Assembly: GCA_036924085.1 (NCBI GenBank)
Contig: JAVGWX010000007.1
Coordinates: 103,712,138 to 103,776,137, forward strand
Origin: Ariolimax columbianus
Lineage: Eukaryota; Mollusca; Gastropoda; Stylommatophora; Arionidae
Reading direction: 5' to 3'
Length of the DNA stretch: 64,000 nt
This document shows positions 3,001-58,934 of this stretch, in pieces. The notes beneath the pieces are model-generated. The model was not told the DNA's origin, searched no databases, and saw only the letters and a program-made list of their open reading frames with translations. The first letter of the stretch is position 1; the number at the start of each line of letters is the position of its first letter. A program made the translations under genes and the position numbers.

Positions 3001-6000
3001 CGAGAGGTTTGCCAGAGGTTGGTGAGAGTGTATGGAGAGGTTGATTAGAGTGTGACGAGATGTTGGTGAGAGGTTGATGAGAGTGTGTCGAGAGAGTGTG
3101 GTGAGAGGTTTGGGAAAGTGTGTCGAGATGTTGGTGAGAGTGTGTCGAGAGGTTGGTGAGAGTGTGTCGAGAGGTTGGATAGAGTGTGTCGAGAGGTTGG
3201 TGAGAGTGTGACGAGAGGTTGGTGAGAGTGTGACGAGAGGTTGGTGAGAGTGTGACGAGAGGTTGGTGAGAGTGTGTCGACAAGTTGGTGAGAGTGTGAC
3301 GAGAGGTTGGTGAGAGGTTTGGGAAAGTGTGTCGAGATGTTGGTGAGAGTGTGTCGAGAGGGGTTGTGAGAGTGTGTCGAGAGGTTTGGGAAAGTGTGTC
3401 GAGATGTTTGTGAGAGTGTGTCGAAAGGTTGGTGAGAGTGTGTCGAGAGGTTGGTGAGAGTGTGTCGAGAGGTTGTGAGAGTGTGGTGAGAGTGTCTCGA
3501 GAGGTTGGTGAGAGTTTGATGAGAGTGTGGTGAGAGATTTGGGAAAGTGTGTCGTGATGTTGGTGAGAGTGTGTCGAGAGGTCGGTGAGAGTGTGTCGAG
3601 AGGTTGGTGAGAGTTTGTGAGAGTGTGTCGAGAGGTTGGTGAGAGTGTGTCGAGAGGTTGGTGAGAGTTTGTGAGAGTGTGTCGAGAGGTTGGATAGAGT
3701 GTGTCGAGAGGTTGGTGAGAGTGTGTCGAGAGGTTGGCCAGAGGTTGGTGAGAGTGTATGGAGAGGTTGATGAGAGTGTGACGAGAGGTTGGTGAGATGT
3801 TGATGAGAGTGTGTCGAGAGGTTGGTGAGAGTGTGACGAGAGAGTGTGGTGAGAGTGTGTCGAGAGAGTGTGGTGAGAGGTTGATGAGAGTGTGTCGAGA
3901 GAGTGTGGTGAGAGGTCTATGAGAGTGTGTCGAGAGAGTGTGGTGAGAGGTTGATGAGAGTGTGTCGAGAGGTTGGTGACAGGTTGGTGAGAGTGTGTCG
4001 AGAGGCTGGTGAGAGTGTGGTGAGAGGTTGGTGAGAGTGTGTCGATAGGTTGGCCAGAGGTTGGTGAGAGTGTATGGAGAGGTTGATGAGAGTGTGACGA
4101 GAGGTTGGTGAGAGGTTGATGAGAGTGTGTCGAGAGGTTGGCCAGAGGTTGGTGAGAGTGTATGGAGAGGTTGATGAGAGTGTGACGAGAGATTGGTGAG
4201 AGGTTGATGAGAGTGTGTCGAGAGGTTGGCCAGAGGTTTGTGAGAGTGTATGGAGAGGTTGATGAGAGTGTGACGAGAGGTTGGTGAGAGTGTGGTGAGG
4301 TTGGTGAGAGTGTGTCGGAAGAGTGTGGTGAGAGGTTGATGAGAGTGTGTCGAGAGAATGTGGTGAGAGGTTAATGAGAGTGTGTCGAGAGGTTGGTGAC
4401 AGGTTGGTGAGAGTGTGTCGAGAGGTTGGTGAGAGTGTGTCGAGAGGTTGGTGAGAGTGTGGTGAGAGTGTGTCGAGAGGTTGGTGAGAGTGTGTCGATA
4501 GGTTGGCCAGAGGTTGGTGAGAGTGTATGGAGAGGTTGATGAGAGTGTGACGAGAGAGTGTGGTGAGAGGTTGATGAGAGTGTGACGAGAGGTTGATGAG
4601 AGTGTGTCGAGAGAGTGTGGTGAGAGGTTGATGAGAGTGTGTCGAGAGGTTTGTGAGAGGTTGATGAGAGTGTTTCGAGAGGTTGGTGAGAGTGTGGTGA
4701 GAGGTTGATGAGAGTGTGTCGAGAGGTTGGTGAGAGTGTGGTGAGAGGTTGATGAGAGTGTGTCGATAGGTTGGTGAGAGTGTGACGAGAGGTTGGTAAG
4801 AGGTTGATGAGAGTGTGACGAGAGGTTGGTGAGAGGTTGATGAGAGTGTGGTGAGAGGTTTGGGAAAGTGTGTCGAGAGGTTGGTGAGAGTGTGTCGAGA
4901 GGTTGGTGAGAGTGTGTCGAGAGGTCGGTGAGAGTGTGTCGAGAGATTGGTGAGAGTGTGTCGAGAGGTTGGTGAGAGTGTGCCGAGAGGTTGGTGAGAG
5001 TGTGCCGAGAGGTTTGTTACAGGTTGTTGAGAGTGTGTCGAGAGGTTGGTGAGAGTGTGTCGAGAGGTCGGTGAGAGTGTGTCGAGAGGTTGGTGAGTGT
5101 GTCGAGAGGTTGGTGAGAGTGTGCCGAGAGGTTCATGAGAGTGTGCCGAGAGGTTGGTGACAGGTTGGTGAGAGTGTGTCGAGAGGTTGGTGAGAGTGTC
5201 TCGAGAGGTTTGTGAGAGTGTGTCGAGAGGTTGGTGAGAGTGTGCCGAGAGGTTGGTGACAGGTTGGTGAGAGTGTGTCGAGAGGTTGGTGAGAGTGTCT
5301 CGCGAGGTTGGTGAGAGTGTGTCGAGAGGTTGGTGAGAATGTGCCGAGAGGTTGGTGAGAGTGTGCCGAGAGGTTGGTTAGAGGTTGATGAGAGTGTGAC
5401 GAGAGGTTGGTGAGAGTGTGTCGAGAGGTTGGTGAGATTGTGTCGAGAGGTCGGTGAGAGTGTGTCGAGAGGTTGGTGAGAGTGTGTCGAGAGGTTGGTG
5501 AGAGTGTGCCGAGAGGTTGGTGAGAGTGTGCCGAGAGGTTTGTGACAGGTTGTTGAGAGTGTGTCGAGAGGTTGGTGAGAGTGTGTCGAGAGGTCGGTGA
5601 GAGTGTGTCGAGAGGTTGGTGAGTGTGTCGAGAGGTTGGTGAGAGTGTGCCGAGATGTTGGTGAGAGTGTGCCGAGAGGTTGGTGACAGGTTGGTGAGAG
5701 TGTGTCGAGAGGTTGGTGAGAGTGTCTCGAGAGGTTGGTGAGAGTGTGTCGAGAGGTTGGTGAGAGTGTGTCGAGAGGTTGGTGAGAGTGTGGTGAGAGT
5801 GTGTCGAGAGGTTGGTGAGAGTGTGTCGATAGGTTGGCCAGAGGTTGGTGAGAGTGTATGGAGAGGTTGATGAGAGTGTGACGAGAGAGTGTGGTGAGAG
5901 GTTGATGAGAGTGTGACGAGAGGTTGATGAGAGTGTGTCGAGAGAGTGTGGTGAGAGGTTGATGAGAGTGTGTCGAGAGGTTTGTGAGAGGTTGATGAGA

Positions 6001-7698
6001 GTGTTTCGAGAGGTTGGTGAGAGTGTGGTGAGAGGTTGATGAGAGTGTGTCGAGAGGTTGGTGAGAGTGTGGTGAGAGGTTCATGAGAGTGTGTCGATAG
6101 GTTGGTGAGAGTGTGACGAGAGGTTGGTAAGAGGTTGATGAGAGTGTGACGAGAGGTTGGTGAGAGGTTGATGAGAGTGTGGTGAGAGGTTTGGGAAAGT
6201 GTGTCGAGAGGTTGGTGAGAGTGTGTCGAGAGGTTGGTGAGAGTGTGTCGAGAGGTCGGTGAGAGTGTGTCGAGAGATTGGTGAGAGTGTGTCGAGAGGT
6301 TGGTGAGAGTGTGCCGAGAGGTTGGTGAGAGTGTGCCGAGAGGTTTGTTACAGGTTGTTGAGAGTGTGTCGAGAGGTTGGTGAGAGTGTGTCGAGAGGTC
6401 GGTGAGAGTGTGTCGAGAGGTTGGTGAGTGTGTCGAGAGGTTGGTGAGAGTGTGCCGAGAGGTTCATGAGAGTGTGCCGAGAGGTTGGTGACAGGTTGGT
6501 GAGAGTGTGTCGAGAGGTTGGTGAGAGTGTCTCGAGAGGTTTGTGAGAGTGTGTCGAGAGGTTGGTGAGAGTGTGCCGAGAGGTTGGTGACAGGTTGGTG
6601 AGAGTGTGTCGAGAGGTTGGTGAGAGTGTCTCGCGAGGTTGGTGAGAGTGTGTCGAGAGGTTGGTGAGAATGTGCCGAGAGGTTGGTGAGAGTGTGCCGA
6701 GAGGTTGGTTAGAGGTTGATGAGAGTGTGACGAGAGGTTGGTGAGAGTGTGTCGAGAGGTTGGTGAGATTGTGTCGAGAGGTCGGTGAGAGTGTGTCGAG
6801 AGGTTGGTGAGAGTGTGTCGAGAGGTTGGTGAGAGTGTGCCGAGAGGTTGGTGAGAGTGTGCCGAGAGGTTTGTGACAGGTTGTTGAGAGTGTGTCGAGA
6901 GGTTGGTGAGAGTGTGTCGAGAGGTCGGTGAGAGTGTGTCGAGAGGTTGGTGAGTGTGTCGAGAGGTTGGTGAGAGTGTGCCGAGATGTTGGTGAGAGTG
7001 TGCCGAGAGGTTGGTGACAGGTTGGTGAGAGTGTGTCGAGAGGTTGGTGAGAGTGTCTCGAGAGGTTGGTGAGAGTGTGTCGAGAGGTTGGTGAGAGTGT
7101 GCCGAGAGGTTGGTGACAGGTGGGTGAGAGTGTGTCGAGAGGTTGGTGAGAGTGTGCCGAGAGGTTGGTGAGAGTGTGCCGAGAGGTTGGTTAGAGTGTG
7201 ACGAGAGGTTGGTGAGAGTGTCTCGAGAGGTTTGTGAGAGTGTCTCGAGAGGTTGATGAGAGTGTGACGAGAGGTTGGTGAGAGTGTCTCGAGAGGTTGG
7301 TTAGAGGTTGATGAGAGTGTGACGAGAGGTTGGTGAGAGGTTGATGAGAGGTTTGGGAAAGTGTGTCGAGATGTTGGTGAGAGTGTGTCGAGAGGTCGGT
7401 GAGAGTGTGTCGAGAGGTTGGTGACAGGTTGGTGAGAGTGTGTCGAGAGGTTGGTAAGAGTGTGTCGAGAGGTTGGTGAGAGTGTGTCGAGAGGTCGGTG
7501 AGAGTGTGGTGAGAGTGTGTCTAGAGGTTGGTGAGAGTGTGCCGAGAGGTTGGTGAGAGTGTGACGAGAGGTTGATGACAGGTTGGTGAGAGTGTGTAGA
7601 GAGGTTGGTGACAGGTTGGTGAGAGTGTGTCGAGAGGGTGGTGAGAGTGTGTCGAGAGGTCGGTGACAGGTTGGTGAGAGTGTGTCGAGAGGTTGGTT
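1..7698. repeat. 22-bp minisatellite, about 7.7 kb, with higher-order structure
   Basis: The whole stretch is tandem copies of a purine-rich 22-bp unit built around GAGAGTGTGTCGAGAGG followed by TTGGT or TTGATG variants. The minus strand has no stop codon in any phase of the common unit, and 22 is not divisible by 3, so a single frame reads all three phases in turn. This gives long open frames (for example 3283 down to 467) of His-Ser-Thr-Leu-Pro-rich peptide repeating every 22 residues. I treat these as artefacts, because there is no start context, no domain and no sequence unlike the repeat. Larger blocks recur with offsets of about 0.54, 2.0 and 1.33 kb. The array is truncated by the window start. 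Confidence 0.95.
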
Positions 7699-16809: not shown

Positions 16810-18951
16810 ATGAAGCGCACAGGGAATACCAGAGGGACACACCATCTCCGGCAGCAAAAGCTGCCTTCAATACTGCTCGCAAAGCTGTCCAGACCAGGCT
16901 TAGAGATGCAAGACTCCTGGCTCAGCAAAAGAGCTGACGAAATTGAGATGTTCGCCGAGGGTCATGACACCAAACGGTTTTACGAGGCACTGAAAGCTCT
17001 CTACGGCCCGCAGCCCTCTAGTAATACTCCAGTTCGCAGTGCGGATGGGGTACTGCTAACAGATAAGGTTCAGATTCTAGATAGATGGGCAGACCACTTC
17101 TGCAAAATACTAAACCACCCATCGTCCATAAATGAAGAGGCCATCCGGCGAATGCCGCAGGTGGAACTGAACCTGGCGTTGGATGAAGTCATTACTGAGG
17201 AGGAAGTCGACAGGGCAATCAGTTCACTATCTATTGGAAAAGCTCCAGGAGCTGATGCAATACCAGCAGAGGTATATAAGACAGCTGGCCCATCCCTCAC
17301 CAGAAGGATCGCTGAACTCTTCTGTCACATGTGGGCTGAAGGTAAAATTCCGCAGGAGCTAAAGGACGCCTCAATCGTTCACCTGTACAAAAGAAAAGGC
17401 AACCGTCAGGAATGCGACAATCATCGTGGAATATCGCTACTCTCTGTAGCAGGCAAGATCCTAGCGCGCTTACTGCTAAACAGGCTCAATAAACACCTTG
17501 AACAAAGCCACCACCTCCCAGAAAGCCAATGTGGATTCAGAGCCGGAAGAGGAACAGTGGACATGATTTTTGCCGCTCGTCAAGTACAAGAGAAGTGTCG
17601 AGAGCAAAATCAGGCCTTGTACACCACATTTATTGATTTGACAAAGGCATTTGATACAGTAAACAGAGGAGGGCTGTGGATGATAATGTCTAAGTTTGGC
17701 TGCCCCAACAAGTTCATAACAATGGTGAAACAGCTACAGGAAGGCATGTGTGCTCGTGTACTGGACAGCGGTGCAATTTCTAAAACGTTTCTAGTATCAA
17801 ACGGAGTAAAACAAGGATGTGTACTCGCCCCGACTTTGTTCAGTATGATGTTCGCGGCCACGATGACAGACGCCTTCAGATCATTGGAGCTTGGAATACA
17901 CATAAAGTACCGCACAGATGGCAAGTTACTCAATTCCAGAAGAATGAAGGCCAAAACCAAAGTAGCTGGCGACATAATCAGGGAACTTGTATTTGCTGAC
18001 GACTGCGCTCTAATGAGCAACTCAGAACTGAACATGTAGGTTGGAATGGACCAGTTCTCTGCCGCATGCAACAATTTTGGCCTGACCATAAATGCCAAAA
18101 AAACAGAGGTCATGTACCAACCAGCACCAGGCATGCCGTACACAAAACCAGAGACTACAGTCAGCGGGCAGACGCTGAATGCCGTAGACAAATTCACATA
18201 TCTGGGCAGCACGCTGTCGAGATCTGTCAGCCTAGACGATGAGGTGGCAAGCAGAATAGCAAAGGCCAGCACAGCCTTTGGAAGAATGCGCTCGATGGTC
18301 TGGGCACGTCGTGGCATCAGCGTCAAGACCAAACTCAAAGTCTACCGTGCAACCATCATTCCAACCCTACTATACGCTTGCGAAAGCTGGACTGTATACT
18401 CTGGACATGCAAGGAGGTTAAACCACTTCCACATAGGTTGCCTGAGGCGAATATTCCACATCCAATGGCAAGATCGTGTCACTGACATCGAGGTTCTCTC
18501 GAGGGCTAACATGCCCAGCATCCATGCACTGCTAGAAAAAGCACGACTAGGATGGGCCGGATACCTCGTCCGTATGTCAGACGAGCGGCTCCCAAAGAAG
18601 CTTCTCTACGGCGAGCTGAGAGAGGGATGGCGCGAGAGAGGGCGCCCAAAGAAACGTTTTAAAGACGGTATGAAGGACTCACTAAAAAGTTGCCAGATAG
18701 ACATCGACACCTGGGAATGTCTTGCGAAAAACAGATCTGACTGGAGAAGCGCAGTCAAATCGGGTGTAGCTGCCGGTGAAGACGACAGTGTTGTGAAAGC
18801 CCAGAACAGACGCGAGACGCGGAAATCCCGAGCAGCGGGAACACCATCCCCTTCTACAAACCTCGTGTGCCCGATATGTAGCAGATGTTTTCGTGCTCGC
18901 ATTGGTCTGTTCAGCCACATGCGCACCCACACCCAACAGGGAAATCTGTGA
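16810..18951 (+). pseudogene. 5'-truncated LINE reverse transcriptase ORF with one in-frame stop
   Basis: Two open stretches (16810-18039 and 18046-18951) lie in the same frame, separated only by a TAG at 18037-18039 and two codons. Together they encode about 710 residues of non-LTR reverse transcriptase. Visible motifs are GKAPGADAIPAEVYK, the FIDLTKAFDTVNR block with a catalytic Asp, NGVKQGCVLAPTLF, and the catalytic FADD at residues 395-398 of the first part. The C-terminal part has a LGWAGYLVRM block and ends in a C2H2 finger (Cys275, Cys278, His291, His295). The N-terminal endonuclease expected upstream is missing, as is usual for 5'-truncated copies. Coding capacity is otherwise well preserved, so the copy is comparatively young. 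The LINE clade is not certain. Confidence 0.9.
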
Positions 18952-24712: not shown

Positions 24713-24756
24713 TCATCTCTTCTAATGTCATCGGTCCTCATTCCAGCTCTGTAACT

Positions 24757-25986
24757 TTTTAGAGTCAATAATCAAAGAAAACATTGTAATGCATTTAGAC
24801 AAATTTAATCTAATTAGAAATAGTCAGCATGGGTTTACTAGAGGGAGATCATGCTGAACAAATCTATTAGAATTCATGGAGGAGATTACTAAAATTATAA
24901 ATAGAGGGGAGTCAGTGGATGTTATTTATCTAGATTTTGGCGTTGATAAAGTACCTTATCAAAGATTGTTTAGAAAGTTACAATCACATGGAATAGGTGG
25001 GGAAGTTGGCAAATGGATTGAAAATTGGTTAACGGGAAGAGGGCAGAGGCTGGGCATCAATAAGGAGTACTCTGAGTGGTATGAAGTGAAAAGTGGTGTG
25101 CCACAGGGCTCGGTATTGGGACCAATTTTATTCTTGATATATATAAATGATTTGGAAAATCATATCAGTTCCGGGAAACACATTTCGTAGATGACATAAA
25201 ACTATGCAGCAGTGCCTTATCTAAAGCAGAAGTGGATATATTGAGGTCGGATTTAGACAAAATTCAAGAATGGTCTGTCAGCTGGCAAATGGAGTTTAAT
25301 GTAGATAAATGTACAGTCATCCACATGGGTAGATCCAATTTGGAACATAATTACAGAATGGGAGAGAACAATATTAGAAACATAGAAAAAGAAAGGAACC
25401 TATGGTTTAAAATAGATCATATAGGTAAGGTGAGTGAATGAGCAAGTCTATGTAGCAGTGAAAAAGGCAAATGCAATGTTAAACATAGGAGCAAGGAAGT
25501 GATTGCCAAACTGTATAATGCATTAGAGGAAATCTAAACATGCAGGAAAGGATACAAAAAAATAACCACAAAGCTGATAGTATGATTCCAGAATTACATT
25601 TATTAGGAAAGACTCAGAAAAACCGGCCTACAGTGTCTAGAAAAGAGAAGAATTCGTGGTGACAATAACGGTTTATACGATAATCAAAGGAACGGATAAA
25701 TTAGACTATAACAAGTTTTTTTTCAAAATACAACCATGTACAAGAACAAGAGGGCATAGCTAACAATTAACTAAAGAAAGGTCCAAATTATATAGTAGAA
25801 AATATGTTTGTAGTCAGAGAGTGGGGAATGCTTGGATTTCATTGCCGCGGGAAGTAGTGGAGGCAGAGACAATCAATGCATTCAATAATACATTGGATGC
25901 ATAAGGCTTTTAGAGCTAGGAAATGTAAATGAAACTGGGTGTATACATACCCTGCAGAGTCTTCTAACTAAGTAAAACAAGTTAAC
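24757..25986 (+). pseudogene. 5'-truncated CR1-like LINE (family A), decayed
   Basis: Reverse-transcriptase sequence begins at ESIIKENIVMHLDKFNLI (about 24765) and continues through a QHGFT block, VIYLDF (catalytic Asp region), NWLTGRGQR, SGVPQGSVLGPILFLIYIND and QEWSVSWQMEFNVDKCTVIH. There is an in-frame TGA near 24855, and the FADD region at about 25190 is broken by a frameshift. The C-terminal part is decayed. It ends in the family's shared 3' terminus at 25934-25986. The SGVPQGS and FLIYIND blocks are typical of the CR1/Rex/jockey side of the LINE tree. Confidence 0.85.
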
Positions 25987-28712: not shown

Positions 28713-29865
28713 CAACAATGGCTGCTTTCAAAACCAAGGATGTCACATTTAAAGTGACAGTGACCTATAAATATTGCAACCAATGGGATTCTAGATTGGG
28801 TGGGACCAAATGAGAGTGATGGCTAACCAGCCAACTGGGGACGACTACTCGATATTCTTGTGTGTTTCTAGAGCTAAAAAACGAAATAGTTTATAAAAAA
28901 CAATGCAGAGAGAAATTCTGCAATTTTGGAGAGAGAGACTTGACGGGACGGTTATCCTATCATACACCTAGAGCCTTACATTCACGCTCAAACGGGTTGA
29001 AGGGTGGACATCCTGTAAGCAATATGAGATAGAGATCTGATCACACGCGAGTGAGAAGATTCGTCTTGGCACGATCTGACAGTTGTTCTATATAGCTGTC
29101 TGACTGTTCTCCGCAGCCATTGCATTGGTTCCTACTGGAGGAATGGTGGCTCTTCTACGATCAAAGGTAGCTGTCTCAGACAAAGTGGCTCTATAAGGAT
29201 TATGTGTAATCCTAGGGACTGCGATCCCGAAGGCACATGAGCCCTCATAGAACGGAATTGTTCGATACAGGTGTAACATGGGCACCAAAGGGGCATGTCT
29301 CAAACACTTGAGAACTGCTAACGGTTGTAAGTGAAACGTAGCTGACGTAGTTTGTACGCTTGACAGGGCAGCCTAAAGCAGTCAACTCTGACAGAGAACG
29401 GCAGATCATCACCAACGTAGACGATCCGGAGGACGACAGGAGACAACGACTGAGATAGAACTACTGGTTTGTAATACGGTTGAATTAGATTGTTTAGGAT
29501 TTATGGTATTTCAATTGAGACTTACAACCTGGGTATAACATTTTCGGAGGCACCATCAAAAGCTAGTGCTTGAATCCTCTGAGTTATTTTCATAAATGTC
29601 ATTATTTAGTTTAGGAGTTCTTTTCGTTTTTGTTGATATTATGTAACAATTATTCATGCAAATAAATTAGGTTATTCTGTCTTACTGGTTAACGATAGTT
29701 TTTGTGTTTTCTGTGATTGAAGTCGTGTCGTTGTGTAGAATATGTTGTATTTTCAGTAAACTCTTAAGATAACTAGTCAGCTAAGCTTATCCTGTCACAT
29801 ACAAAACTGGGTTTATAATTCCAGGGATTCCATTCATTCTCACTCTAAACCTCCCGAGACAGAAA
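28713..29865. other. Unique sequence before the 61-bp satellite
   Basis: About 1.15 kb without a convincing gene. An AATAAA lies at 29661, and TATAACATTTTCGGAGGCACC at about 29533 hints at retroelement sequence, but there is not enough for a call. Confidence 0.4.
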
Positions 29866-32800
29866 GATTGAGTTATTGATTAGTTAGTATTAGGCATAGA
29901 TACGCTCGGCGACTGTGCCGGCAAGAGATTGAGTTATTGATTAGTTAGTATTAGGCATAGATACGCTCGGCGACTGTGCCGGCAAGAGATTGAGTTATTG
30001 ATTAGTTAGTATTAGGCATAGATACGCTCGGCGACTGTGCCGGCAAGAGATTGAGTTATTGATTAGTTAGTATTAGGCATAGATACGCTCGGCGACTGTG
30101 CCGGCAAGAGATTGAGTTATTAGTTAATTTTAGGCATAGATTCGCTCGGCGACTGTGCCGGCAAGAGATTGAGGTATTAGTTAGTTTTAGGCATAGATTC
30201 GCTCGGCGACTGTGCCGGCAAGAGATTGAGTTATTAGTTAGTTAGTATTAGGCATAGATACGCTCGGCGACTGTGCCGGCAAGAGATTGAGTTATTGATT
30301 AGTTAGTATTAGGCATAGATACGCTCGGCGACTGTGCCGGCAAGAGATTGAGTTATTGATTAGTTAGTATTAGGCATAGATACGCTCGGCGACTGTGCCG
30401 GCAAGAGATTGAGTTATTGATTAGTTAGTATTAGGCATAGATACGCTCGGCGACTGTGCCGGCAAGAGATTGGGTTATTGATTAGTTAGTATTAGGCATA
30501 GATACGCTCGGCGACTGTGCCGGCAAGAGATTGAGTTATTGATTAGTTAGTATTAGGCATAGATACGCTCGGCGACTGTGCCGGCAAGAGATTGAGTTAT
30601 TAGTTAATTTTAGGCATAGATTCGCTCGGCGACTGTGCCGGCAAGAGATTGAGGTATTAGTTAGTTTTAGGCATAGATTCGCTCGGCGACTGTGCCGGCA
30701 AGAGATTGAGTTATTAGTTAGTTAGTATTAGGCATAGATACGCTCGGCGACTGTGCCGGCAAGAGATTGAGTTATTGATTAGTTAGTATTAGGCATAGAT
30801 ACGCTCGGCGACTGTGCCGGCAAGAGATTGAGTTATTGATTAGTTAGTATTAGGCATAGATACGCTCGGCGACTGTGCCGGCAAGAGATTGAGTTATTGA
30901 TTAGTTAGTATTAGGCATAGATACGCTCGGCGACTGTGCCGGCAAGAGATTGTGTTATTGATTAGTTAGTATTAGGCATAGATACGCTCGGCGACTGTGC
31001 CGGCAAGAGATTGAGTTATTGATTAGTTAGTATTAGGCATAGATACGCTCGGCGACTGTGCCGGCAAGAGATTGAGTTATTGATTAGTTAGTATTAGGCA
31101 TAGATACGCTCGGCGACTGTGCCGGCAAGAGATTGAGTTATTGATTAGTTAGTATTAGGCATAGATACGCTCGGCGACTGTGCCGGCAAGAGATTGAGTT
31201 ATTGATTAGTTAGTATTAGGCATAGATACGCTCGGCGACTGTGCCGGCAAGAGATTGAGTTATTGATTAGTTAGTATTAGGCATAGATACGCTCGGCGAC
31301 TGTGCCGGCAAGAGATTGAGTTATTGATTAGTTAGTATTAGGCATAGATACGCTCGGCGACTGTGCCGGCAAGAGATTGAGTTATTAGTTAATTTTAGGC
31401 ATAGATTCGCTCGGCGACTGTGCCGGCAAGAGATTGAGGTATTAGTTAGTTTTAGGCATAGATTCGCTCGGCGACTGTGCCGGCAAGAGATTGAGTTATT
31501 AGTTAGTTAGTATTAGGCATAGATACGCTCGGCGACTGTGCCGGCAAGAGATTGAGTTATTGATTAGTTAGTATTAGGCATAGATACGCTCGGCGACTGT
31601 GCCGGCAAGAGATTGAGTTATTGATTAGTTAGTATTAGGCATAGATACGCTCGGCGACTGTGCCGGCAAGAGATTGAGTTATTGATTAGTTAGTATTAGG
31701 CATAGATACGCTCGGCGACTGTGCCGGCAAGAGATTGGGTTATTGATTAGTTAGTATTAGGCATAGATACGCTCGGCGACTGTGCCGGCAAGAGATTGAG
31801 TTATTGATTAGTTAGTATTAGGCATAGATACGCTCGGCGACTGTGCCGGCAAGAGATTGAGTTATTAGTTAATTTTAGGCATAGATTCGCTCGGCGACTG
31901 TGCCGGCAAGAGATTGAGGTATTAGTTAGTTTTAGGCATAGATTCGCTCGGCGACTGTGCCGGCAAGAGATTGAGTTATTAGTTAGTTAGTATTAGGCAT
32001 AGATACGCTCGGCGACTGTGCCGGCAAGAGATTGAGTTATTGATTAGTTAGTATTAGGCATAGATACGCTCGGCGACTGTGCCGGCAAGAGATTGAGTTA
32101 TTGATTAGTTAGTATTAGGCATAGATACGCTCGGCGACTGTGCCGGCAAGAGATTGAGTTATTGATTAGTTAGTATTAGGCATAGATACGCTCGGCGACT
32201 GTGCCGGCAAGAGATTGGGTTATTGATTAGTTAGTATTAGGCATAGATACGCTCGGCGACTGTGCCGGCAAGAGATTGAGTTATTGATTAGTTAGTATTA
32301 GGCATAGATACGCTCGGCGACTGTGCCGGCAAGAGATTGAGTTATTGATTAGTTAGTATTAGGCATAGATACGCTCGGCGACTGTGCCGGCAAGAGATTG
32401 AGTTATTGATTAGTTAGTATTAGGCATAGATACGCTCGGCGACTGTGCCGGCAAGAGATTGAGTTATTGATTAGTTAGTATTAGGCATAGATACGCTCGG
32501 CGACTGTGCCGGCAAGAGATTGAGTTATTAGTTAATTTTAGGCATAGATTCGCTCGGCGACTGTGCCGGCAAGAGATTGAGGTATTAGTTAGTTTTAGGC
32601 ATAGATTCGCTCGGCGACTGTGCCGGCAAGAGATTGAGTTATTAGTTAGTTAGTATTAGGCATAGATACGCTCGGCGACTGTGCCGGCAAGAGATTGAGT
32701 TATTGATTAGTTAGTATTAGGCATAGATACGCTCGGCGACTGTGCCGGCAAGAGATTGAGTTATTGATTAGTTAGTATTAGGCATAGATACGCTCGGCGA

Positions 32801-34069
32801 CTGTGCCGGCAAGAGATTGAGTTATTGATTAGTTAGTATTAGGCATAGATACGCTCGGCGACTGTGCCGGCAAGAGATTGGGTTATTGATTAGTTAGTAT
32901 TAGGCATAGATACGCTCGGCGACTGTGCCGGCAAGAGATTGAGTTATTGATTAGTTAGTATTAGGCATAGATACGCTCGGCGACTGTGCCGGCAAGAGAT
33001 TGAGTTATTAGTTAATTTTAGGCATAGATTCGCTCGGCGACTGTGCCGGCAAGAGATTGAGGTATTAGTTAGTTTTAGGCATAGATTCGCTCGGCGACTG
33101 TGCCGGCAAGAGATTGAGTTATTAGTTAGTTAGTATTAGGCATAGATACGCTCGGCGACTGTGCCGGCAAGAGATTGAGTTATTGATTAGTTAGTATTAG
33201 GCATAGATACGCTCGGCGACTGTGCCGGCAAGAGATTGAGTTATTGATTAGTTAGTATTAGGCATAGATACGCTCGGCGACTGTGCCGGCAAGAGATTGG
33301 GTTATTGATTAGTTAGTATTAGGCATAGATACGCTCGGCGACTGTGCCGGCAAGAGATTGAGTTATTGATTAGTTAGTATTAGGCATAGATACGCTCGGC
33401 GACTGTGCCGGCAAGAGATTGAGTTATTAGTTAATTTTAGGCATAGATTCGCTCGGCGACTGTGCCGGCAAGAGATTGAGGTATTAGTTAGTTTTAGGCA
33501 TAGATTCGCTCGGCGACTGTGCCGGCAAGAGATTGAGTTATTAGTTAGTTAGTATTAGGCATAGATACGCTCGGCGACTGTGCCGGCAAGAGATTGAGTT
33601 ATTGATTAGTTAGTATTAGGCATAGATACGCTCGGCGACTGTGCCGGCAAGAGATTGAGTTATTGATTAGTTAGTATTAGGCATAGATACGCTCGGCGAC
33701 TGTGCCGGCAAGAGATTGAGTTATTGATTAGTTAGTATTAGGCATAGATACGCTCGGCGACTGTGCCGGCAAGAGATTGGGTTATTGATTAGTTAGTATT
33801 AGGCATAGATACGCTCGGCGACTGTGCCGGCAAGAGATTGAGTTATTGATTAGTTAGTATTAGGCATAGATACGCTCGGCGACTGTGCCGGCAAGAGATT
33901 GAGTTATTAGTTAATTTTAGGCATAGATTCGCTCGGCGACTGTGCCGGCAAGAGATTGAGTTATTAGTTAATTTTAGGCATAGATTCGCTCGGCGACTGT
34001 GCCGGCAAGAGATTGAGGTATTAGTTAGTTTTAGGCATAGATTCGCTCGGCGACTGTGCCGGCAAGAGA
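29866..34069. repeat. 61-bp satellite with a 480-bp higher-order unit
   Basis: About 69 head-to-tail monomers share AGATTGAG, TTAGGCATAGAT and CGCTCGGCGACTGTGCCGGC. Most are 61 bp; two variants are 57 bp and carry TAGTTAATTTTAGG or GGTATTAGTTAG. The 57-bp TAGTTAATTT variant occurs at 30121, 30601, 31386, 31866, 32529, 33009, 33428 and 33908. The recurrent spacing is exactly 480 bp, equal to two 57-bp plus six 61-bp monomers. Other spacings are 785, 663 and 419 bp, which are 480 plus five, plus three and minus one 61-bp monomer. The CGGC/GCCG core could form a short hairpin in each monomer. Confidence 0.97.
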
Positions 34070-34109
34070 ATGATGATGACCCCAGCAGTTTCACCAGACG
34101 AAGAGTCCT

Positions 34110-35190
34110 TGCAGCCCAGAGTCACGCAGAAGGATCAAGCAAATGGCCCGCCCCATCGCCGAGCTCCAGCACGTGATCCCATCTCGTATCAAACGGGACG
34201 AGAGTGACCTCCCATCTGCAGATAGAAAGAGTTATCTGCGGCTTCTAAACGAACTTATTCAAGTCATCGCTTCCTCTCCCCACCCCTATACGTCCCTCAC
34301 TAATCCCACATTTCTGACCTCAGAGATCCGAAGTGGTATTGAAAGCATGCCCTGGCAAGAACGGAATCACGGTGGAGACACTAACCGGTGTGGCCAGCCA
34401 CTCTATGCAGCACTCGTACAACGATTCACATGTTTTCTAGAATAGAAGGGAATTACACCGGACTGGCGAGGGTCGAAGACTATCTTACTGTACAAGAAAG
34501 GAGACAAAGAAGACCTGGCTAACTACCGCCCTATCACCCTCCTCTCAGTACTGTACAAAGTATTCACCAGATGCCTCCTGGCGAGGATCCGCAACACCCT
34601 CGAGGAAGCCCAACCTATAGAGTAGGCTGGGTTCAGAGGCACATACAGCATCCTGGACCACATAACCACGTGTTGTCGTTCGATTGAGGCAGCACAAGAG
34701 CACTACACACCGCTAGTGTTGACATTCATCGACTACTAAAAGGCTTTGGACTCGGTCTAACCAGAATATGTGTGGAAAGCTCTGGAAGTCGAAGCTGGTT
34801 ACACGGACATGTTGAACCGTTGCTGTGATGGATGCACGACCATCATTCGTTCATTCTCACGACCGATATCAGTCGCCACGGAGAAAGGTGTACGACAGGA
34901 CGACCCCATCTCGCCCAACCTTTTCTCTGCTTGTCTGGAGTCGACGATGGGACATTGCGACTGAAGCGAGTACGGCATCAACATAAATGGGCGACTACTC
35001 AACACCCGCCGAAGCTGACGATATCACACTTATCACAGAGACACCCACCGAAGCGACTAGCATCGCTGGAAGCGGTGGGTAAAAAAGTAGCCCTCACAAT
35101 AAATATAGAAAAAGCGAAAAGAATGTGCAACAGTTTTGGGGAGCCCAACGCCGAATGATACGCAATTGGATGATGTCGACGAAAACATCT
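34110..35190 (+). pseudogene. Decayed RTE-like reverse transcriptase fragment
   Basis: Translated blocks in order are [57 protein letters not shown], an AGFR block after a stop, VLTFIDY (a stop follows), and GVRQDDPISPNLFSACLES. At least three in-frame stops and two frameshifts (near 34960 and 35010) disable it. The block order and wording resemble RTE-type LINE reverse transcriptases. It runs straight into the 24-bp array at 35175, which amplifies the next part of the same ORF. Confidence 0.82.
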
Positions 35191-36355: not shown

Positions 36356-36837
36356 TATATATTTAAAATACCAGCTTTCCCTAACACCAGTTCCTGGAGA
36401 ATGTAACTGGGCAGGTACACAGCTCACAACATCTCTATTGGATGCTGCCAATCTGGTTGTGTACACAAGCAACAAGAAATGAGGTTCCAGTGTCACCATG
36501 GTTTGGTAATGACATAACTTAACTTCTTTATACTGGTTTAGAAGACTCTGCAGAATCTGTATACAACCAGATTCTTTTACATCTGTCAAATCTATGTGTG
36601 CCATACAGGGTAAGTACTGTGGTCAGATATCAGGAAATCAATGTTTCCAGCCTCGGAATGTCCTCCATATTTGTTAAGAGTTAGATTTCAAGATAAGTAC
36701 ATTCTAATTGTAGAACAAATGAGAGAGGTCAGTTCAATGGTCTCAGTCTAAGAAATGCACATTATCTTTCTAGTAACGGTACCAGTGTGATCTGAATGCA
36801 TAATGCAAGAAAAAATGCCAGATAATAAGTAGCAGAC
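36181..36837. other. Unique sequence with a TA/CA microsatellite and a LINE tail
   Basis: A mixed TA and CA dinucleotide tract lies at 36324-36363. A family A LINE 3' terminus on the minus strand lies at 36519-36570. No gene was recognised. Confidence 0.6.
36519..36570 (-). mobile_element. 3'-terminal stub of a family A LINE
   Basis: The reverse complement reads CTGGTTGTATACAGATTCTG and CTTCTAAACCAGTATAAAG, the conserved end also found at 25934, 40216, 55743 and 58883. Only the end survives; no ORF is attached. Confidence 0.75.
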
Positions 36838-39235: not shown

Positions 39236-40215
39236 TTCACTATTCATAGTATGAGTTTACTGTTTATGAGATCACTGTTCATAGTATGAGTTTACTGTTT
39301 GTGGTATGAGATCACTGTTCATAGTATGGGTTTACTGTTTGTGGTATGAGATCACTGTTCATAGTATGAGTTTACTGTTTGTGGTATGAGATCACTGTTC
39401 ATAGTATGAGTTTACTGTTTATGAGATCACTGTTCATAGTATGAGTTTACTGTTTGTGGTATGAGATCACTGTTCATAGTATGGGTTTACTGTTTGTGGT
39501 ATGAGATCACTGTTCATAGTATGAGTTTACTGTTTGTGGTATGAGATCACTGTTCATAGTATGAGTTTACTGTTTATGAGATCACTGTTCATAGTATGAG
39601 TTTACTGTTTGTGGTATGAGATCACTGTTCATAGTATGGGTTTACTGTTTGTGGTATGAGATCACTGTTCATAGTATGAGTTTACTGTTTATGAGATCAC
39701 TGTTCATAGTATGGGTTTACTGTTTGTGGTATGAGATCACTGTTCATAGTATGAGTTTACTGTTTGTGGTATGTGATCACTGTTCATAGTATGAGTTTAC
39801 TGTTTGTGGTATGAGTTTACTGTTTGTGGTATGAGATCACTGTTCATAGTATGAGTTAACTGTTTGTGATGTGAGTTTACTGTTTGTGGTATGCGATCAC
39901 TGTTCATAGTATGAGTTTATTGTTTGTGGTATGAGTTTACTGTTTGTGGTATGCGATCACTGTTCATAGTATGAGTTTACTGTTTGTGGTATGAGTTTAC
40001 CATTTGTGGTATGAGATCACTGTTCATAGTATGAGTTTACTGTTTGTGGTATGAGATCACTGTTCATAGTATGAGTTTACTGTTTGTGGTATGAGTTTAC
40101 TGTTTGTGGTATGAGATCACTGTTCATAGTATGAGTTTACTGTTTGTGATATGAGTTCACTGTTTGTGGTACACGTTTGCTGTTCATAGTATGAGTTCAC
40201 TGTTCATAGTATACT
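39236..40215. repeat. 40-bp tandem array, left part, interrupted by a LINE
   Basis: Units are ACTGTTCATAGTATGAGTTT plus ACTGTTTGTGGTATGAGATC. The array resumes at 41806-41840, past the inserted LINE. Confidence 0.93.
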
Positions 40216-41805
40216 TAACTTCATTATACTGGTTTAGAAGGCTCTACATAGTCTGTATACAACCAGTTTATTTCACTCCACGGATAACGAAAATACTGTA
40301 TCAAATCAATTTTTGAATGCATTAACTGACTCTGCTTCCACTTCATCCTGCTGTAATGCATTCCAAGAATTCAGCACTATCTGAATAACAAAATATTACC
40401 TCATATCTAATCTAGACCTGTCTTTAAACAATTTGTAGCTGTGCCCTCTTGTTCTTGTAGCCGGTCGTACTTTGACAAACTTTGTATAGTCTAATTTATC
40501 CTTTCCACTTATTAATTTATACACTTGTATTAAGTCACCTCGAATTCTTCTTTGTTCGAGACATTGAAGACCAGTCTTTTTTAGTCTTTCCTCTTAACTA
40601 TAATTCTGATACACCGCGATCATTTTTGTAGCTCTTCTTTGTACCCGTTCCAGCATGTTTATATCCACTCTATTATATGGACTCCCCACCTGAACACAGT
40701 ACGCCAATTTAGGTCTCACTAATGATTTATATATCTTGAATTTTACTTCCTTGCTCTTATGTGAAATGTTTCTTTTTAGCATGCCTAACATGGCTTTATC
40801 TTCCACCTGGACTTGCTCCTGCACCTACCTGTATGATCTATTATAACTCCTAGGTCTCTTTCCTTTTCTATTGTCCTAATATTGTTCTGTCCCATCCTGT
40901 AATTATATTCATTATTGGATATTCCCATGTGGATGGATGGCTGTACATTTTTCTACATTAAATTTCATCTGCCAGCTCTCAGACCATTTTAGAATCATAT
41001 CTAAATCCGACCTCAATAGATCCACCTCTTCCACAGAAGAGACCATGCCACATAATTTTGTGTCATCCGCAAACTTTGCAATCACGGATCTGATATCAAT
41101 GTTCAAATCATTGATATATATGAAGAACAAAAATTGGTCCCAATACCGATCCCTGGGGCACACCACATCACACAAGTCAGAGTACACCCTATTTATGCCA
41201 ACTCTCTGCGTTCTACCCGTCAACCAATTTTTGATCCAGTTGGCAACTACCCCAGCTATGCTTCTGAAACAATCGTTGATGAGGTTCTCTATCAAAGACC
41301 TTTACAAAGTCCAGAGAGATAACATCCACCGGCTCTCCATCATCCAACATTTTGGTGACCTCCTCCAAGAATTCTAATAGATTGCTTAAACACGATCTTC
41401 CTTTAGTAAACCCATGCTGACTGTTTATGATTAAATTAAACTTGTCCAAGTGCAGTACTATGTTGTCCTTGTCCAAGTGCAGTACTATGTTGTCCTTGTC
41501 CAAGTGCAGTACTATGTTGTCCTTGTCCAAGTGCAGTACTATGTTGTCCTTGTCCAAGTGCAGTACTATGCTGTCCTTGTCCAAGTGTGGTACTATGTTG
41601 TCCTTGTCCAAGTGCAGTACTATGTTGTCCTTGTCCAAGTGCAGTACTATGTTGTCCTTGATAATAGAGTCTAAAATTTTGCAGAGTATGCTCGTCAAAC
41701 TCACTGGTCTATAATTGTCTGGATCTGACATCTTGCCCTTTTTAAACAAGAGGATCACGCCTGCATCTTTCCAATCCCTTGGAAAAATCCCCTCTCAAGA
41801 GTGTG
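40216..41805 (-). pseudogene. 5'-truncated CR1-like LINE (family A) inserted in an array
   Basis: Read on the minus strand from 41805, it encodes DWKDAGVILLFKKGKMSDPD, NYRPVSL, then an expanded DNIVLHLDK tract, a QHGFTKGRSCLSNLLEFL block, PVDVISLDF, NWLTGRTQRVGINRVYSD, a frameshifted PQG region, FLFFIYINDL, KFADDTKLCG and WSESWQMKFNVEKC. It ends with the RRATKMIAV-type C-terminal block and the shared 3' terminus (40216-40267). Frameshifts split the ORF. AGTATACT occurs at 40208-40215 and 41806-41813, a probable 8-bp target-site duplication. Confidence 0.9.
41440..41662 (-). repeat. 27-bp in-frame array inside the LINE ORF, about 8 copies
   Basis: On the plus strand the unit contains GTCCAAGTGCAGTACTATGT; on the minus strand it encodes DNIVLHLDK. 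The period is a multiple of three and preserves the RT frame. The related copy at 24.77 kb has a single unit (ENIVMHLDK). Confidence 0.95.
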
Positions 41806-41840
41806 AGTATACTGTTTGTGGTATGAGTTTGCTGATCACA
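41806..41840. repeat. 40-bp array remnant right of the LINE
   Basis: ACTGTTTGTGGTATGAGTTT matches the array at 39236-40215 and shows that the LINE split it. Confidence 0.8.
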
Positions 41841-42689
41841 GTAAAAGTAACATTCTTTTCAGGAACTGTACTTCTGATTCACTGTCCATCATTCCCAATG
41901 ATGTGCAACCCAAGCCAAATATAACCTTAGATCAATCAAGCTTCTTGAAACAGGAGCCAACAAAAGAATAATAGAAAGAGACACATCTCAATTCAGTCCC
42001 TCCCTCTGCTGCTCATGTCCTCTAATCTTGATCTAGAGGTTTGTAGTGTCTACAGAATCGGCTAGCCAGCCCCATGCCCAACCCTTCGCAATTGTCTCAC
42101 ATGACATGTCTGACATGTTACAGTCTTACTATTATTGTTTTCTTTTCGGACCCTGCAACACACATGTGCAGCGATATATCAATGATATTAATAAACCACT
42201 GGTGACCAATTGGACATTTTCAGATGCCAACATGTGGAAGGCAATACAGCAAGGTCTATGCATGAACTTGTGAAGACAGGTAATATGTGTGGCAGTACGA
42301 TAACACAGCTGCCTACAGTCTCTACGTCTTGTCATACGCCAACAAGTATCTCACCATCCCTGATTGGATTAGGGGATCCCGTACTAGGGATGATAGAGTA
42401 GGACCACGGCACCTCCTTGCAGGTCGGAAAAGGTGGCTGAACAGAGTTGTGTATAAGGCTAGCAAAAGTATAAATAAAAGTAAAATAAATTGCTACAGAA
42501 ACTACAACTGCAAAAGCAGACAAGAAACGTATTTCCTAAACTAAGCCCCAACTGCAGAAGTGGCCTATACTCCGAGTGGAGCAGATCCAGCAAGAATGTT
42601 ACCTGCACAATCTACAATTTAACAGAATTACATCATTCAGGTGTTCATATTTTATGATGACAAAAACAACAGTTTTCAGCACTGAATGA
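41841..42689. other. Unique sequence, nothing recognised
   Basis: Several small overlapping ORFs but no domain and no splice-bounded structure. Confidence 0.45.
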
Positions 42690-55515: not shown

Positions 55516-56791
55516 TAATTGATGAGTGGTTAATTGGACCTTATTTCTAATTAAAGTCAGCCTTGACTTTGGAGTTGTTTAAAAAACTGATGTTGAGCTG
55601 GATCTAAAACACCAGCACGTGAATGATTACATGCTGCTGAACATGTCATGTATATCAGAGACACTCAATGCATTCAAAGGTATCATCATTAAATGTGATA
55701 CAGTGGGTTGGATTGTAGCTAGTTTGACTGTGTATATGAAAACTGGTTGTATACAGACTCTGCAGAGCCTTCTAAATCGGTATAAAGATGACAAGTTTAA
55801 GATGCTGAACATCACATTCCCACAGGTAGACAAGTAGAGAACCTCAGTGCAGTTAATGCACATAGGCATAGATTCTTATGTCCATGATCCCAAAATTAGT
55901 GCAACAGTCCTATCCATCAAGGCAGCCACTATCCAGTCCACCAGCTATGAATTGTCCCTCAAACAGTAATTAGGGTCTATGTTAGATAACAATGGTCAGA
56001 CTTATAACTGTTTCTTGCCATTAATTGAAAACCTAAAAAAACAAAAACAAAATATGCAGAAGTGCCAGCTTAGCTGATCTGTACTGACATTTGTATCAGA
56101 AATGATGTGTACATCATTTAGTCGTACAATAACAATACAATGAATACATGATTAGTTCATTTATCGAGCTTTACTTTATACTTTATGCTACAGAGTACAC
56201 TCAGTGCAGTGTCAGTACAAGTGAAGCATAGGGTGATCCCTACAGCTGGGACGATTACAGAAAGAAAGCTTGTATCTGAGAATTTGCAGTGACTGGTAGA
56301 CAATCACAATCTATTTGACAATGGGTTGGGTTTACACGCGTAACTTAACCTGATGAGGTTGCTAGCTCACTCCATGTATTACAACCCGTTACCTTACTTA
56401 CCAAAGGCCTTGGTTGGCCTTTCAAGTTTTTTTTCGCCTTTTATGCATATTTGGAATGTTACAATAGCTCTAATCTTTTCAATCCGGATACCACTCGAGT
56501 GAAATGTAAAGTTTAAATAGCACTTATCAAATTAGTGTTGTAGCCCAATGCACATGATTGTACAGTGTACTTTTCATATGATATTATCTTTTACCCCATG
56601 CCCCATAGTTTATTATACTTAGTGCCCCCTTCCCCCTCCCCCGATAATAATATTTGTCAATACAATTCATTTATCGATACAAAAGAGGATCATGTGTAAG
56701 AATATACTTCCTTCGTACAGTGTTAACCTCTGATACTTGCACCTACACTACACAACTTTAGTTTGTTATTTCATTTGAGTACATATCTCAC
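55516..56791. other. Mostly unique sequence with a LINE 3' stub
   Basis: Apart from the LINE terminus at 55743-55795 I see no gene, repeat or RNA. It is AT-rich in the middle. If the putative first exon at 56792 belongs to PHETA, this is intron. Confidence 0.45.
55743..55795 (+). mobile_element. 3'-terminal stub of a family A LINE
   Basis: CTGGTTGTATACAGACTCTG and CTTCTAAATCGGTATAAAG match the family's shared end. No coding remnant was found upstream. Confidence 0.72.
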
Positions 56792-57984: not shown

Positions 57985-58934
57985 ACTCTACTTTGAAGTT
58001 GAAATCACACAGAATAGGTGGGGAAGTTGCCAAATGGATAGATCATAGTCCAGGTAGCAGTCAAAACGACAAATGCAAAGTTAGGTATGATAAATATTAA
58101 ACATAGGAGCAAGGAAGTGATAGTTAAACTGAATAAAGCTTTAGTAAGACCTAGATTGGAGTACTGTGTACCGGTGTGGAGTTTTTTTCGTATAAGAGAT
58201 ATAAACATGCTGGACAGGATTCGGAGAAGAGCAACAAAAGTGATAGTGGTATTACAGTTTGAGGAAAGACTCAGAAAAACCGGCCTAGGGTGCTTAAAAA
58301 GCTGAAGAATTTCAGGCGATTTAATAGTTTTATAAAAGTTAATCAAAAGAAAGGATCAATTAGATTATAACAAGTTTTTCAAAGTGCAGCTACCTACAAG
58401 AACAAGACGGCACAGCTACAAATTAATTAAAGAAAGGTCCAGAGTAGATATTGAAAATATTTTTTAGTCTAAGAGTTGATTGGAATGAATAGTAGAGGCA
58501 GAGTGAGTTAATGCATTCAAAAATAGATTGGATGTGCTTAGTTATTTTTAGGTCTTCTGCGTTCGTTCTCAATCTCTCGCTACCAAACCCTGAAAGGGCT
58601 TAAGTAGCAGAATCTAGTCCAGAGAACGGAATGCCTTGTGTCGTAGTTTACAGCTTGACTGCAATATTTGTACCTTTCAGTCCAACACATCCTTCAGCAA
58701 GCATTTTTTGAGTACCGGGTTAGCATTCCCTCTTCGATCCCTTCTCCTTAGCCAGTCTGCTCTGCTGCAGCCTGTTATCCAGGATCACCGCGTGGAGGTG
58801 TAGAAGGGTCTTGGCAGCTCTGGTTCGCTGACCACTGCAGCTCATGCGCTGCTCAACGTCTTGATCCCATTTTTAGATCAAATTGGTTGTATACAGATTC
58901 TACAGAACCTTCTAAACCAGTATAAAGAAGTTAA
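57985..58934 (+). pseudogene. Family A LINE remnant carrying a nested insertion
   Basis: Short RT pieces are visible: SHRIGGEVAKWI (about 58003), then after a large deletion NIKHRSKEVIVKLNKALVRP, RLEYCVPVWS, DINMLDRIRRRATKVIVV and GLGCLKS. The 3' untranslated part continues to 58551, is interrupted by another element (58552-58868), and resumes to the shared terminus at 58883-58934. No catalytic core remains. Confidence 0.8.
58552..58868 (-). mobile_element. Dispersed element nested in the family A LINE
   Basis: ATTTTTAG flanks it on both sides (58544-58551 and 58869-58876), an 8-bp target-site duplication. The first 140 bp match 22008-22165 (CTGCGTTCGTTCTCAATCTC, AGTCCAGAGAACGG, GACTGCAATATTTG). 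Shared left ends and unequal right ends indicate minus-strand orientation with 5' truncation. No protein motif was seen. Confidence 0.75.

What the first reader, a model, noticed from the sequence alone, without database searches (positions are those of the whole stretch)
41440..41662. Minisatellite born inside a LINE reverse-transcriptase ORF, with the unexpanded relative in the same window
The family A LINE at 40.2-41.8 kb has about 8 in-frame copies of a 27-bp unit encoding DNIVLHLDK, exactly at the site where the related LINE at 24.77 kb has one unit (ENIVMHLDK followed directly by FNLI). The before and after states can be compared directly, and the RT frame is kept across the expansion.
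Basis: seen in the sequence. Interest (0 to 1): 0.75.

Follow-up and report, generated by a model that had tools for sequence, protein, structure and literature searches.

The report
Recurrent minisatellites inside one retrotransposon
In this animal genome one short stretch of a dead jumping gene has turned into a tandem repeat at more than two dozen separate places, mostly near the ends of chromosome-sized contigs, while near-identical single copies are spread evenly, so the element acts like a natural reporter of where minisatellites are born.

Summary
In detail: eight in-frame 27-bp units (KDNIVLHLD) lie at 41444-41659 (minus) in a 5'-truncated, broken LINE; LINE B has one unit at 24774-24800. 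The reading needs changing. The array is not unique: 28 array loci were read here, with 2 to 63 units. Of 40 copies chosen by RT sequence downstream of the site, 24 have one unit, 9 have arrays and 7 have lost, altered or never had it. One unit is ancestral (59 of 60 relatives read).

Frame-keeping means little: the copies are broken, and L013 and L021 have units of 23 or 26 bp.

New: array copies lie near contig ends (27 loci, median 5.3 Mb; single copies 35.0 Mb, n=63; p=6e-6). A second, 43-bp site in the LINE is duplicated at five loci. The B-type unit shows no clear duplication (82 matches, one doubtful).

Best reading: repeated local birth of minisatellites from one vulnerable seed after insertion, favoured near chromosome ends; a mobile array is not excluded (AU p=0.325). 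TE-derived minisatellites are known; I saw no such position test in eight paper searches.

The parts
40216..41805 (-). LINE A: 5'-truncated, broken non-LTR retrotransposon copy carrying the array
   Evidence: blastn to LINE B 24773-25985 at 70.6%; Pfam RVT_1; ends set by where the flanking minisatellite stops and resumes
41444..41659 (-). Eight tandem 27-bp units, AAGGACAACATAGTACTGCACTTGGAC, encoding KDNIVLHLD
24745..25985 (+). LINE B, related subfamily, one unit at 24774-24800 (ENIVMHLDK)
39237..40212 (+). 20/40-bp minisatellite into which LINE A inserted, left part
41806..41846 (+). Same 20/40-bp minisatellite, right part beyond LINE A
40208..40215 (.). Candidate target-site duplication AGTATACT, left copy; weak because the flank is itself repetitive
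   Evidence: a 9-bp chance match deeper in the flanks also exists
41806..41813 (.). Candidate target-site duplication AGTATACT, right copy
58092..58533 (+). LINE C, third and more decayed relative; does not cover the 27-bp site

Best explanation
A LINE subfamily (A-type) spread in a burst; sampled copies are now about 5% from their majority sequence. One 27-bp stretch of its RT-coding region is an easily duplicated seed: it is flanked by AAG (CAAG in many copies) 27 bp apart and holds a GGACAA direct repeat 21 bp apart. After insertion, in some copies, a slippage or microhomology-mediated repair event duplicated the unit. Two or more units are unstable and grew locally, to as many as 63, by unequal exchange, gene conversion or further slippage. 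This happened separately at many loci and with much higher odds near contig (probably chromosome) ends, where recombination or break repair is presumably higher. Shown: one unit is ancestral; many copies of different 5' extent carry arrays; variants amplified within arrays are shared no more than by chance; arrays are distal while singles are spread evenly. Inferred: that each founding duplication was separate and after insertion, the microhomology mechanism, and recombination as the cause of the position effect. The window's array is one such case, in a dead copy with no sign of a protein role.
For: Position: 27 array loci against 63 single-unit loci on C1-C10 (near-duplicates merged), median 5.3 against 35.0 Mb from the nearest contig end, Mann-Whitney p=6e-6; 18/27 against 11/63 within 10 Mb, odds ratio 9.5; singles fit a uniform spread (KS p=0.36), arrays do not (2e-12); shuffling labels within contigs gave 0 of 20000 as low (unmerged 29 against 64). 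Eight of those 29 array loci I did not read and took as arrays from the match list; with only the 21 read, median 5.9 Mb, 13/21 within 10 Mb, p=2.7e-4. A second sample (40 copies picked by downstream RT similarity, sharing A, L027 and 6 singles with the first) agrees: 9 arrays 4.1 Mb, 24 singles 24.7 Mb, p=0.006; by relative distance p=0.028; without A and L027 p=0.005. Local growth: of 33 distinct variants amplified in 24 arrays, 10 occur in more than one array, 10.2 expected by chance. Different upstream extents of shared LINE sequence among array copies, judged by blast only. The closest pair in the tree, L029 and L033 (100/99), has different arrays, 18 and 8 units. A's units differ by 3 in 216 bp while its LINE piece is 8.0% off the majority. 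A second site (43-bp unit) is duplicated at 5 loci, 13 junctions. B-type unit: 82 matches to its would-be duplicate junction, none exact on the left side, one doubtful.
Against: The tree is star-like and does not decide: 7 changes for 9 arrays, 91 of 500 shuffles as low, and the AU test does not reject one array clade (p=0.325); in the larger set, which includes loci chosen for arrays, arrays cluster slightly (12 changes, 10 of 500 shuffles as low). In the 40-copy sample array units are on average as diverged as single units (0.042 against 0.045), which also fits arrays present since insertion. None of 24 arrays has a variant in 80% or more of its units, whereas late births should sometimes fix a founder mutation; 15 of the 24 were picked for a perfect unit. 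The position effect was noticed after the lists were made. Contig ends are assumed to be chromosome ends. Number of units against distance in the 20 fetched loci is only a trend (rho -0.41, p=0.07). Of the five 43-bp loci, two are interior (C3 65.7 Mb, C23 21.4 Mb), two within about 0.6 Mb of an end, and one on C20, whose length I do not know. Random 500-bp stretches did not differ clearly in tandem-repeat cover (distal 0.57, interior 0.35, 8 each, p=0.36).
Confidence: 0.6

Rival explanations
1. Mobile array: one or more source LINEs already had several units and transposed with them; single-unit copies come from other sources. Array length then drifted locally.
For: Arrays at many insertions; AU test does not reject one clade; slight clustering in the larger tree; unit divergence about equal to single-unit divergence.
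Against: Does not predict the contig-end bias, since singles of the same family are spread evenly; amplified variants are shared no more than by chance; array copies are intermixed with single copies (7 changes for 9, though branches there are weak).
Confidence: 0.16
2. The duplication happens during target-primed reverse transcription: the RT slips on the template at this direct repeat, so arrays date from insertion.
For: No array with a founder mutation in 80% of its units, and unit age about equal to insertion age in the 40-copy sample.
Against: Gives no reason for the contig-end bias; A and L027 arrays are much less diverged than their LINE pieces (0.014 against 0.080; 0.004 against 0.067).
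Confidence: 0.1
3. Exchange between or within chromosome ends: a few array-bearing copies were spread by segmental duplication.
For: C4:128048233 and C4:128134313 have the same spacing of matches (only the first was read). L029 and L033 are closest in the tree and 0.73 Mb apart on C13.
Against: Most array copies have different upstream extents of shared LINE sequence and separate tips about 0.05 long in a star tree. What L029 and L033 share upstream is LINE sequence, so they are not shown to be one duplicated insertion.
Confidence: 0.08
4. The repeat is a selected protein feature of the reverse transcriptase (extra 9-aa repeats).
For: Most of the arrays read keep the frame (27-bp units, and 21-bp steps).
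Against: None of 21 array copies has an open frame over the whole RT; L013 has 23-bp units and L021 some 26-bp steps; 59 of 60 relatives read have one unit.
Confidence: 0.02

Closest known systems
TE-derived minisatellites of the human genome with hotspots in AluS and LTR12 (Ahmed and Liang 2012, PMC3389668; section 3.3 and passages read)
   Same: Tandem repeats that recur at the same internal position of many TE copies; the paper separates repeats carried by the TE (suggested for LTR12) from those started at or after each insertion.
   Different: Here the seed lies in the RT-coding part of a LINE, is expanded in 9 of 40 sampled copies, and its expansion depends on position along the contig.
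Minisatellites born within mouse LTR elements and B1 SINEs, and from Alu (Kelly 1994, Bois 1998, Jurka and Gentles 2006; seen only as citations in passages of PMC6947457 and PMC9659126)
   Same: Minisatellites arising inside TE copies.
   Different: I did not read these papers; whether they tested position I do not know.
Minisatellite origin by slippage between short flanking repeats (Haber and Louis 1998, as described in a passage of PMC6947457; Taylor and Breden 2000, seen in the reference list of PMC3389668)
   Same: Unit bounded by a short direct repeat (AAG or CAAG).
   Different: The flanking repeat here is 3-4 bp, below the 5-10 bp quoted in PMC6947457.
Subtelomeric VNTR enrichment in human (PMC7608644; passages read)
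   Same: Tandem-repeat variation concentrated within Mb of chromosome ends, linked by its authors to recombination.
   Different: There the repeats differ in sequence and the reported 21-fold enrichment is for GC-content over 60%; here one seed of 44% GC is compared between positions.

Membership tests
Non-LTR retrotransposon (LINE) | Reverse transcriptase domain | tested here: met
   Pfam RVT_1, 32.3 bits for A's 193-aa frame and 44.5 for B, cut-off 29.6; A's other frame is below it, 23.5
Non-LTR retrotransposon (LINE) | Variable 5' truncation among copies | tested here: met
   Shared LINE sequence reaches about 130 to over 1000 bp upstream of the site, depending on the copy, judged by blast
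Non-LTR retrotransposon (LINE) | Target-site duplication | tested here: inconclusive
   8-bp candidate at A in a repetitive flank
CR1-like clade | Clade placement by RT phylogeny | not tested
   Name recalled from motif style; no tree against named clades was built
Minisatellite | Head-to-tail units of about 10-100 bp | tested here: met
   27-bp units, 8 here; 2 to 63 in the 20 fetched loci
Minisatellite | Copy-number variation between individuals | not testable with these tools
   One assembly only
TE-derived minisatellite started after insertion | Unit occurs once in some TE copies and tandemly in others | tested here: met
   24 single and 9 arrays of 40; 145 single-unit matches
TE-derived minisatellite started after insertion | Founding duplication is local, not inherited with the TE | tested here: inconclusive
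   Position bias and private variants for; tree undecided, AU p=0.325

The most novel reading that the evidence does not exclude
Chromosome position licenses minisatellite birth: one 27-bp seed, scattered over the genome by a retrotransposon, has about ten times higher odds of being an array within some 10 Mb of a chromosome end, so subtelomeric enrichment of minisatellites can reflect a higher local birth or growth rate rather than sequence composition or seeding.
Probability: 0.5. Interest if true: 0.7.

Novelty: new variant of a known kind. Interest (0 to 1): 0.55.

Why it matters
Why minisatellites crowd chromosome ends is hard to answer when each one has a different sequence. Here one TE family supplies many near-identical seeds at known places, with single-unit controls and a sister subfamily whose unit shows no clear duplication. 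That separates sequence from position and lets birth rate, unit requirements and chromosome context be measured in one genome.

Tried and rejected
Selected RT repeat: disfavoured, copies are broken. Unique locus: rejected. All members carry the array: rejected. Tree as a test of origin: built twice, undecided. Age of arrays from unit divergence: mixed. L029 and L033 as one duplicated insertion: I first took them for that; a check showed that the sequence they share upstream is LINE, and that in L033 a 300-bp repeat interrupts it, so I dropped the claim and lowered the best explanation from 0.62 to 0.60 and raised the mobile array from 0.15 to 0.16. General distal excess of tandem repeats: flank cover against distance in the 20 loci chosen for arrays, rho -0.52, p=0.018, but random 500-bp stretches showed no clear difference. 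Folding of the unit: ordinary hairpins without a control, not used. Paper searches: searches found nothing with all terms; some searches gave listings; I read passages of PMC6947457, PMC9659126, PMC3389668 (also its section 3.3) and PMC7608644, and no whole paper.

Not obtained: a genome-wide count of array loci comparable with the 145 singles (search busy) and the species by COX1. The RT family search was busy and was not repeated.

Full report
The observation. On the minus strand of 41444-41659 there are eight head-to-tail units of 27 bp, AAGGACAACATAGTACTGCACTTGGAC, six identical, one with two changes and one with one change (Tandem Repeats Finder 41441-41660, 96% matches). They lie in a 193-aa open frame that matches Pfam RVT_1. 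LINE B at 24745-25985 has one unit at 24774-24800. LINE A itself sits inside an older 20/40-bp minisatellite (39237-40212, resuming at about 41806), with an 8-bp candidate target-site duplication that is weak in such a flank.

What state is old. Of the 120 protein relatives listed (458 passed), I looked at 60; 59 could be read across the site and each has one unit; one print-out stopped short of it. LINE B and four more B-type copies met by chance in fetched loci also have one. One unit is ancestral.

Not a single birth. The window lies in a 2.29-Gb genome of 401 contigs. The unit with the end of a preceding one, up to 3 mismatches, occurs 1018 times (control 0; single copies fall in at 2-3 mismatches). 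The 100 places listed without mismatch fall, by my clustering, into 29 loci on contigs C1-C10, the window's among them, and two on C11. I fetched 20 of the 29 and have the window's own; all 21 hold two or more units at this LINE site, 2 to 63; eight were not read. To avoid choosing by array, I searched with the RT piece downstream of the site: 40 copies were scored of 7411 candidates (three further small matches lie in two of the same loci). Two were already in hand (A and L027) and I fetched 38. Result: 24 with one unit, 9 with arrays (18, 10, 8, 8, 7, 4, 4, 3, 3 units) and 7 with the unit lost, altered or cut off by truncation. In all, 28 array loci were read. A 51-base pattern across the site finds 145 single-unit matches.

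Frame. None of the 21 array-bearing copies checked has an open frame over the whole RT; the longest, 664 aa in L028, is mostly its 63 units. L013 has nine 23-bp units and L021 some 26-bp steps. The open frame over A's array reflects that 27 is a multiple of three and that the unit has no stop.

Where arrays are. Array loci on C1-C10 crowd towards contig ends. After merging near-duplicates, 27 arrays have a median distance of 5.3 Mb and 63 single copies 35.0 Mb (p=6e-6; by relative distance 1.5e-6). Within 10 Mb are 18 of 27 against 11 of 63 (odds ratio 9.5, p=1.2e-5). Singles fit a uniform spread (p=0.36), arrays do not (2e-12), and shuffling labels within contigs never reached the observed value in 20000 draws. 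Unmerged, 29 against 64 give the same picture. With only the 21 array loci that I read, the median is 5.9 Mb and p=2.7e-4. The selection differs between the groups: singles are those with 0-2 mismatches over 51 bases, for which the list was complete; arrays needed one perfect joined unit. The 40-copy sample, sharing A, L027 and 6 singles with the first set, agrees: median 4.1 against 24.7 Mb, p=0.006 (relative distance p=0.028; L033 dropped, p=0.010; A and L027 dropped, p=0.005). I noticed the pattern after the lists were made.

How it grows. Variants repeated within arrays are mostly private: 10 of 33 distinct ones occur in more than one of 24 arrays, 10.2 expected by chance. L029 and L033, the closest pair in the tree (100/99) and 0.73 Mb apart on C13, have different arrays (18 and 8 units); whether they are one duplicated insertion is not settled, since what they share upstream is LINE sequence. 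A's units carry 3 changes in 216 bp while its LINE piece is 8.0% from the majority, and L027 0.4% against 6.7%, so these two arrays grew or were homogenised late. Across the 40-copy sample, however, array units are as diverged as single units (0.042 and 0.045), which also allows birth at or soon after insertion. No array has a variant in 80% of its units, which late births should sometimes show; 15 of these 24 loci were chosen for a perfect unit. Units against distance in the 20 fetched loci is only a trend (rho -0.41, p=0.07).

Tree. Trees of a 507-column piece are star-like with tips near 0.05. In the 40-copy sample the 9 arrays need 7 changes, 91 of 500 shuffles do as well, and one array clade is not rejected (AU p=0.325). 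In the set of 52 rows, which includes loci chosen for arrays, they cluster slightly (12 changes, shuffled mean 16.2, 10 of 500 as low). So the tree does not decide between inherited and local origin; the position effect and private variants favour local.

Why this site. The single unit is bounded by AAG (CAAG in many copies) 27 bp apart and holds GGACAA twice, 21 bp apart; a joined pair makes GGACAAGGACAA, which can explain the 21-bp steps in L033 and L050 (read from sequence). The B-type unit has CAAA at both ends but no GGACAA pair. A search for its duplicate junction gave 82 matches, none with the exact left side; they read as single copies with their normal left flank, and one (C8:94859684) is doubtful. 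So the terminal short repeat alone does not seem to suffice; that GGACAA is the cause is inference. A second site in the same LINE, a 43-bp unit just downstream, is duplicated at five loci: two within about 0.6 Mb of a contig end (C18, C3), two interior (C3 65.7 Mb, C23 21.4 Mb) and one on C20 of unknown length. L020 carries both arrays.

Setting. Tandem repeats cover 41% of the window and 22% of the 20 fetched loci. In random 500-bp stretches cover was 0.35 interior and 0.57 distal, 8 each, not different (p=0.36). The genome looks minisatellite-rich throughout; the end bias is shown for this seed, not for all repeats.

Known or new. TE copies as birthplaces and hotspots of minisatellites are established (PMC3389668, PMC6947457, PMC9659126, passages read), and subtelomeric enrichment of human VNTRs is known (PMC7608644, passages read). 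In eight paper searches, of which I saw listings and these passages, I saw no report that uses copies of one TE as replicate seeds to show that position controls expansion.

Noticed in passing
L059 and L020; also C3:65697481, C20:12585183, C23:21441818: A second minisatellite site in the same LINE: a 43-bp unit just downstream of the 27-bp site, duplicated at five loci; L020 has both arrays.
   Followed up: partly
L013 (around 6282-6516 in LINE sense): At the same LINE site, nine 23-bp units (the 27-bp unit less 4 bases) followed by one normal unit: a frame-breaking amplification.
   Followed up: partly
window 1-64000: Tandem repeats cover 41% of the window, including arrays of 7.7 kb (10-7680) and 4.2 kb (29865-34073); several random stretches elsewhere are also rich.
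   Followed up: partly
L031: A single-unit copy with A-to-C at the same place in both the left and the right AAG, 27 bp apart; may be a contracted array.
   Followed up: no
window about 58560-58833 and the LINE of L033: A non-LINE repeat of about 300 bp, 93% alike in the two places, lies in or beside LINE C and interrupts the LINE of L033.
   Followed up: partly
window 36517-36580, 55740-55799, 58880-58934: Short pieces matching only the 3' end of LINE A (85-88%), perhaps a SINE using the LINE tail; the third may be LINE C's own end beyond the repeat.
   Followed up: no
window 17338-17655 and 34446-34565: Relics of two other reverse transcriptases, 30% and 49% identical to the query.
   Followed up: no
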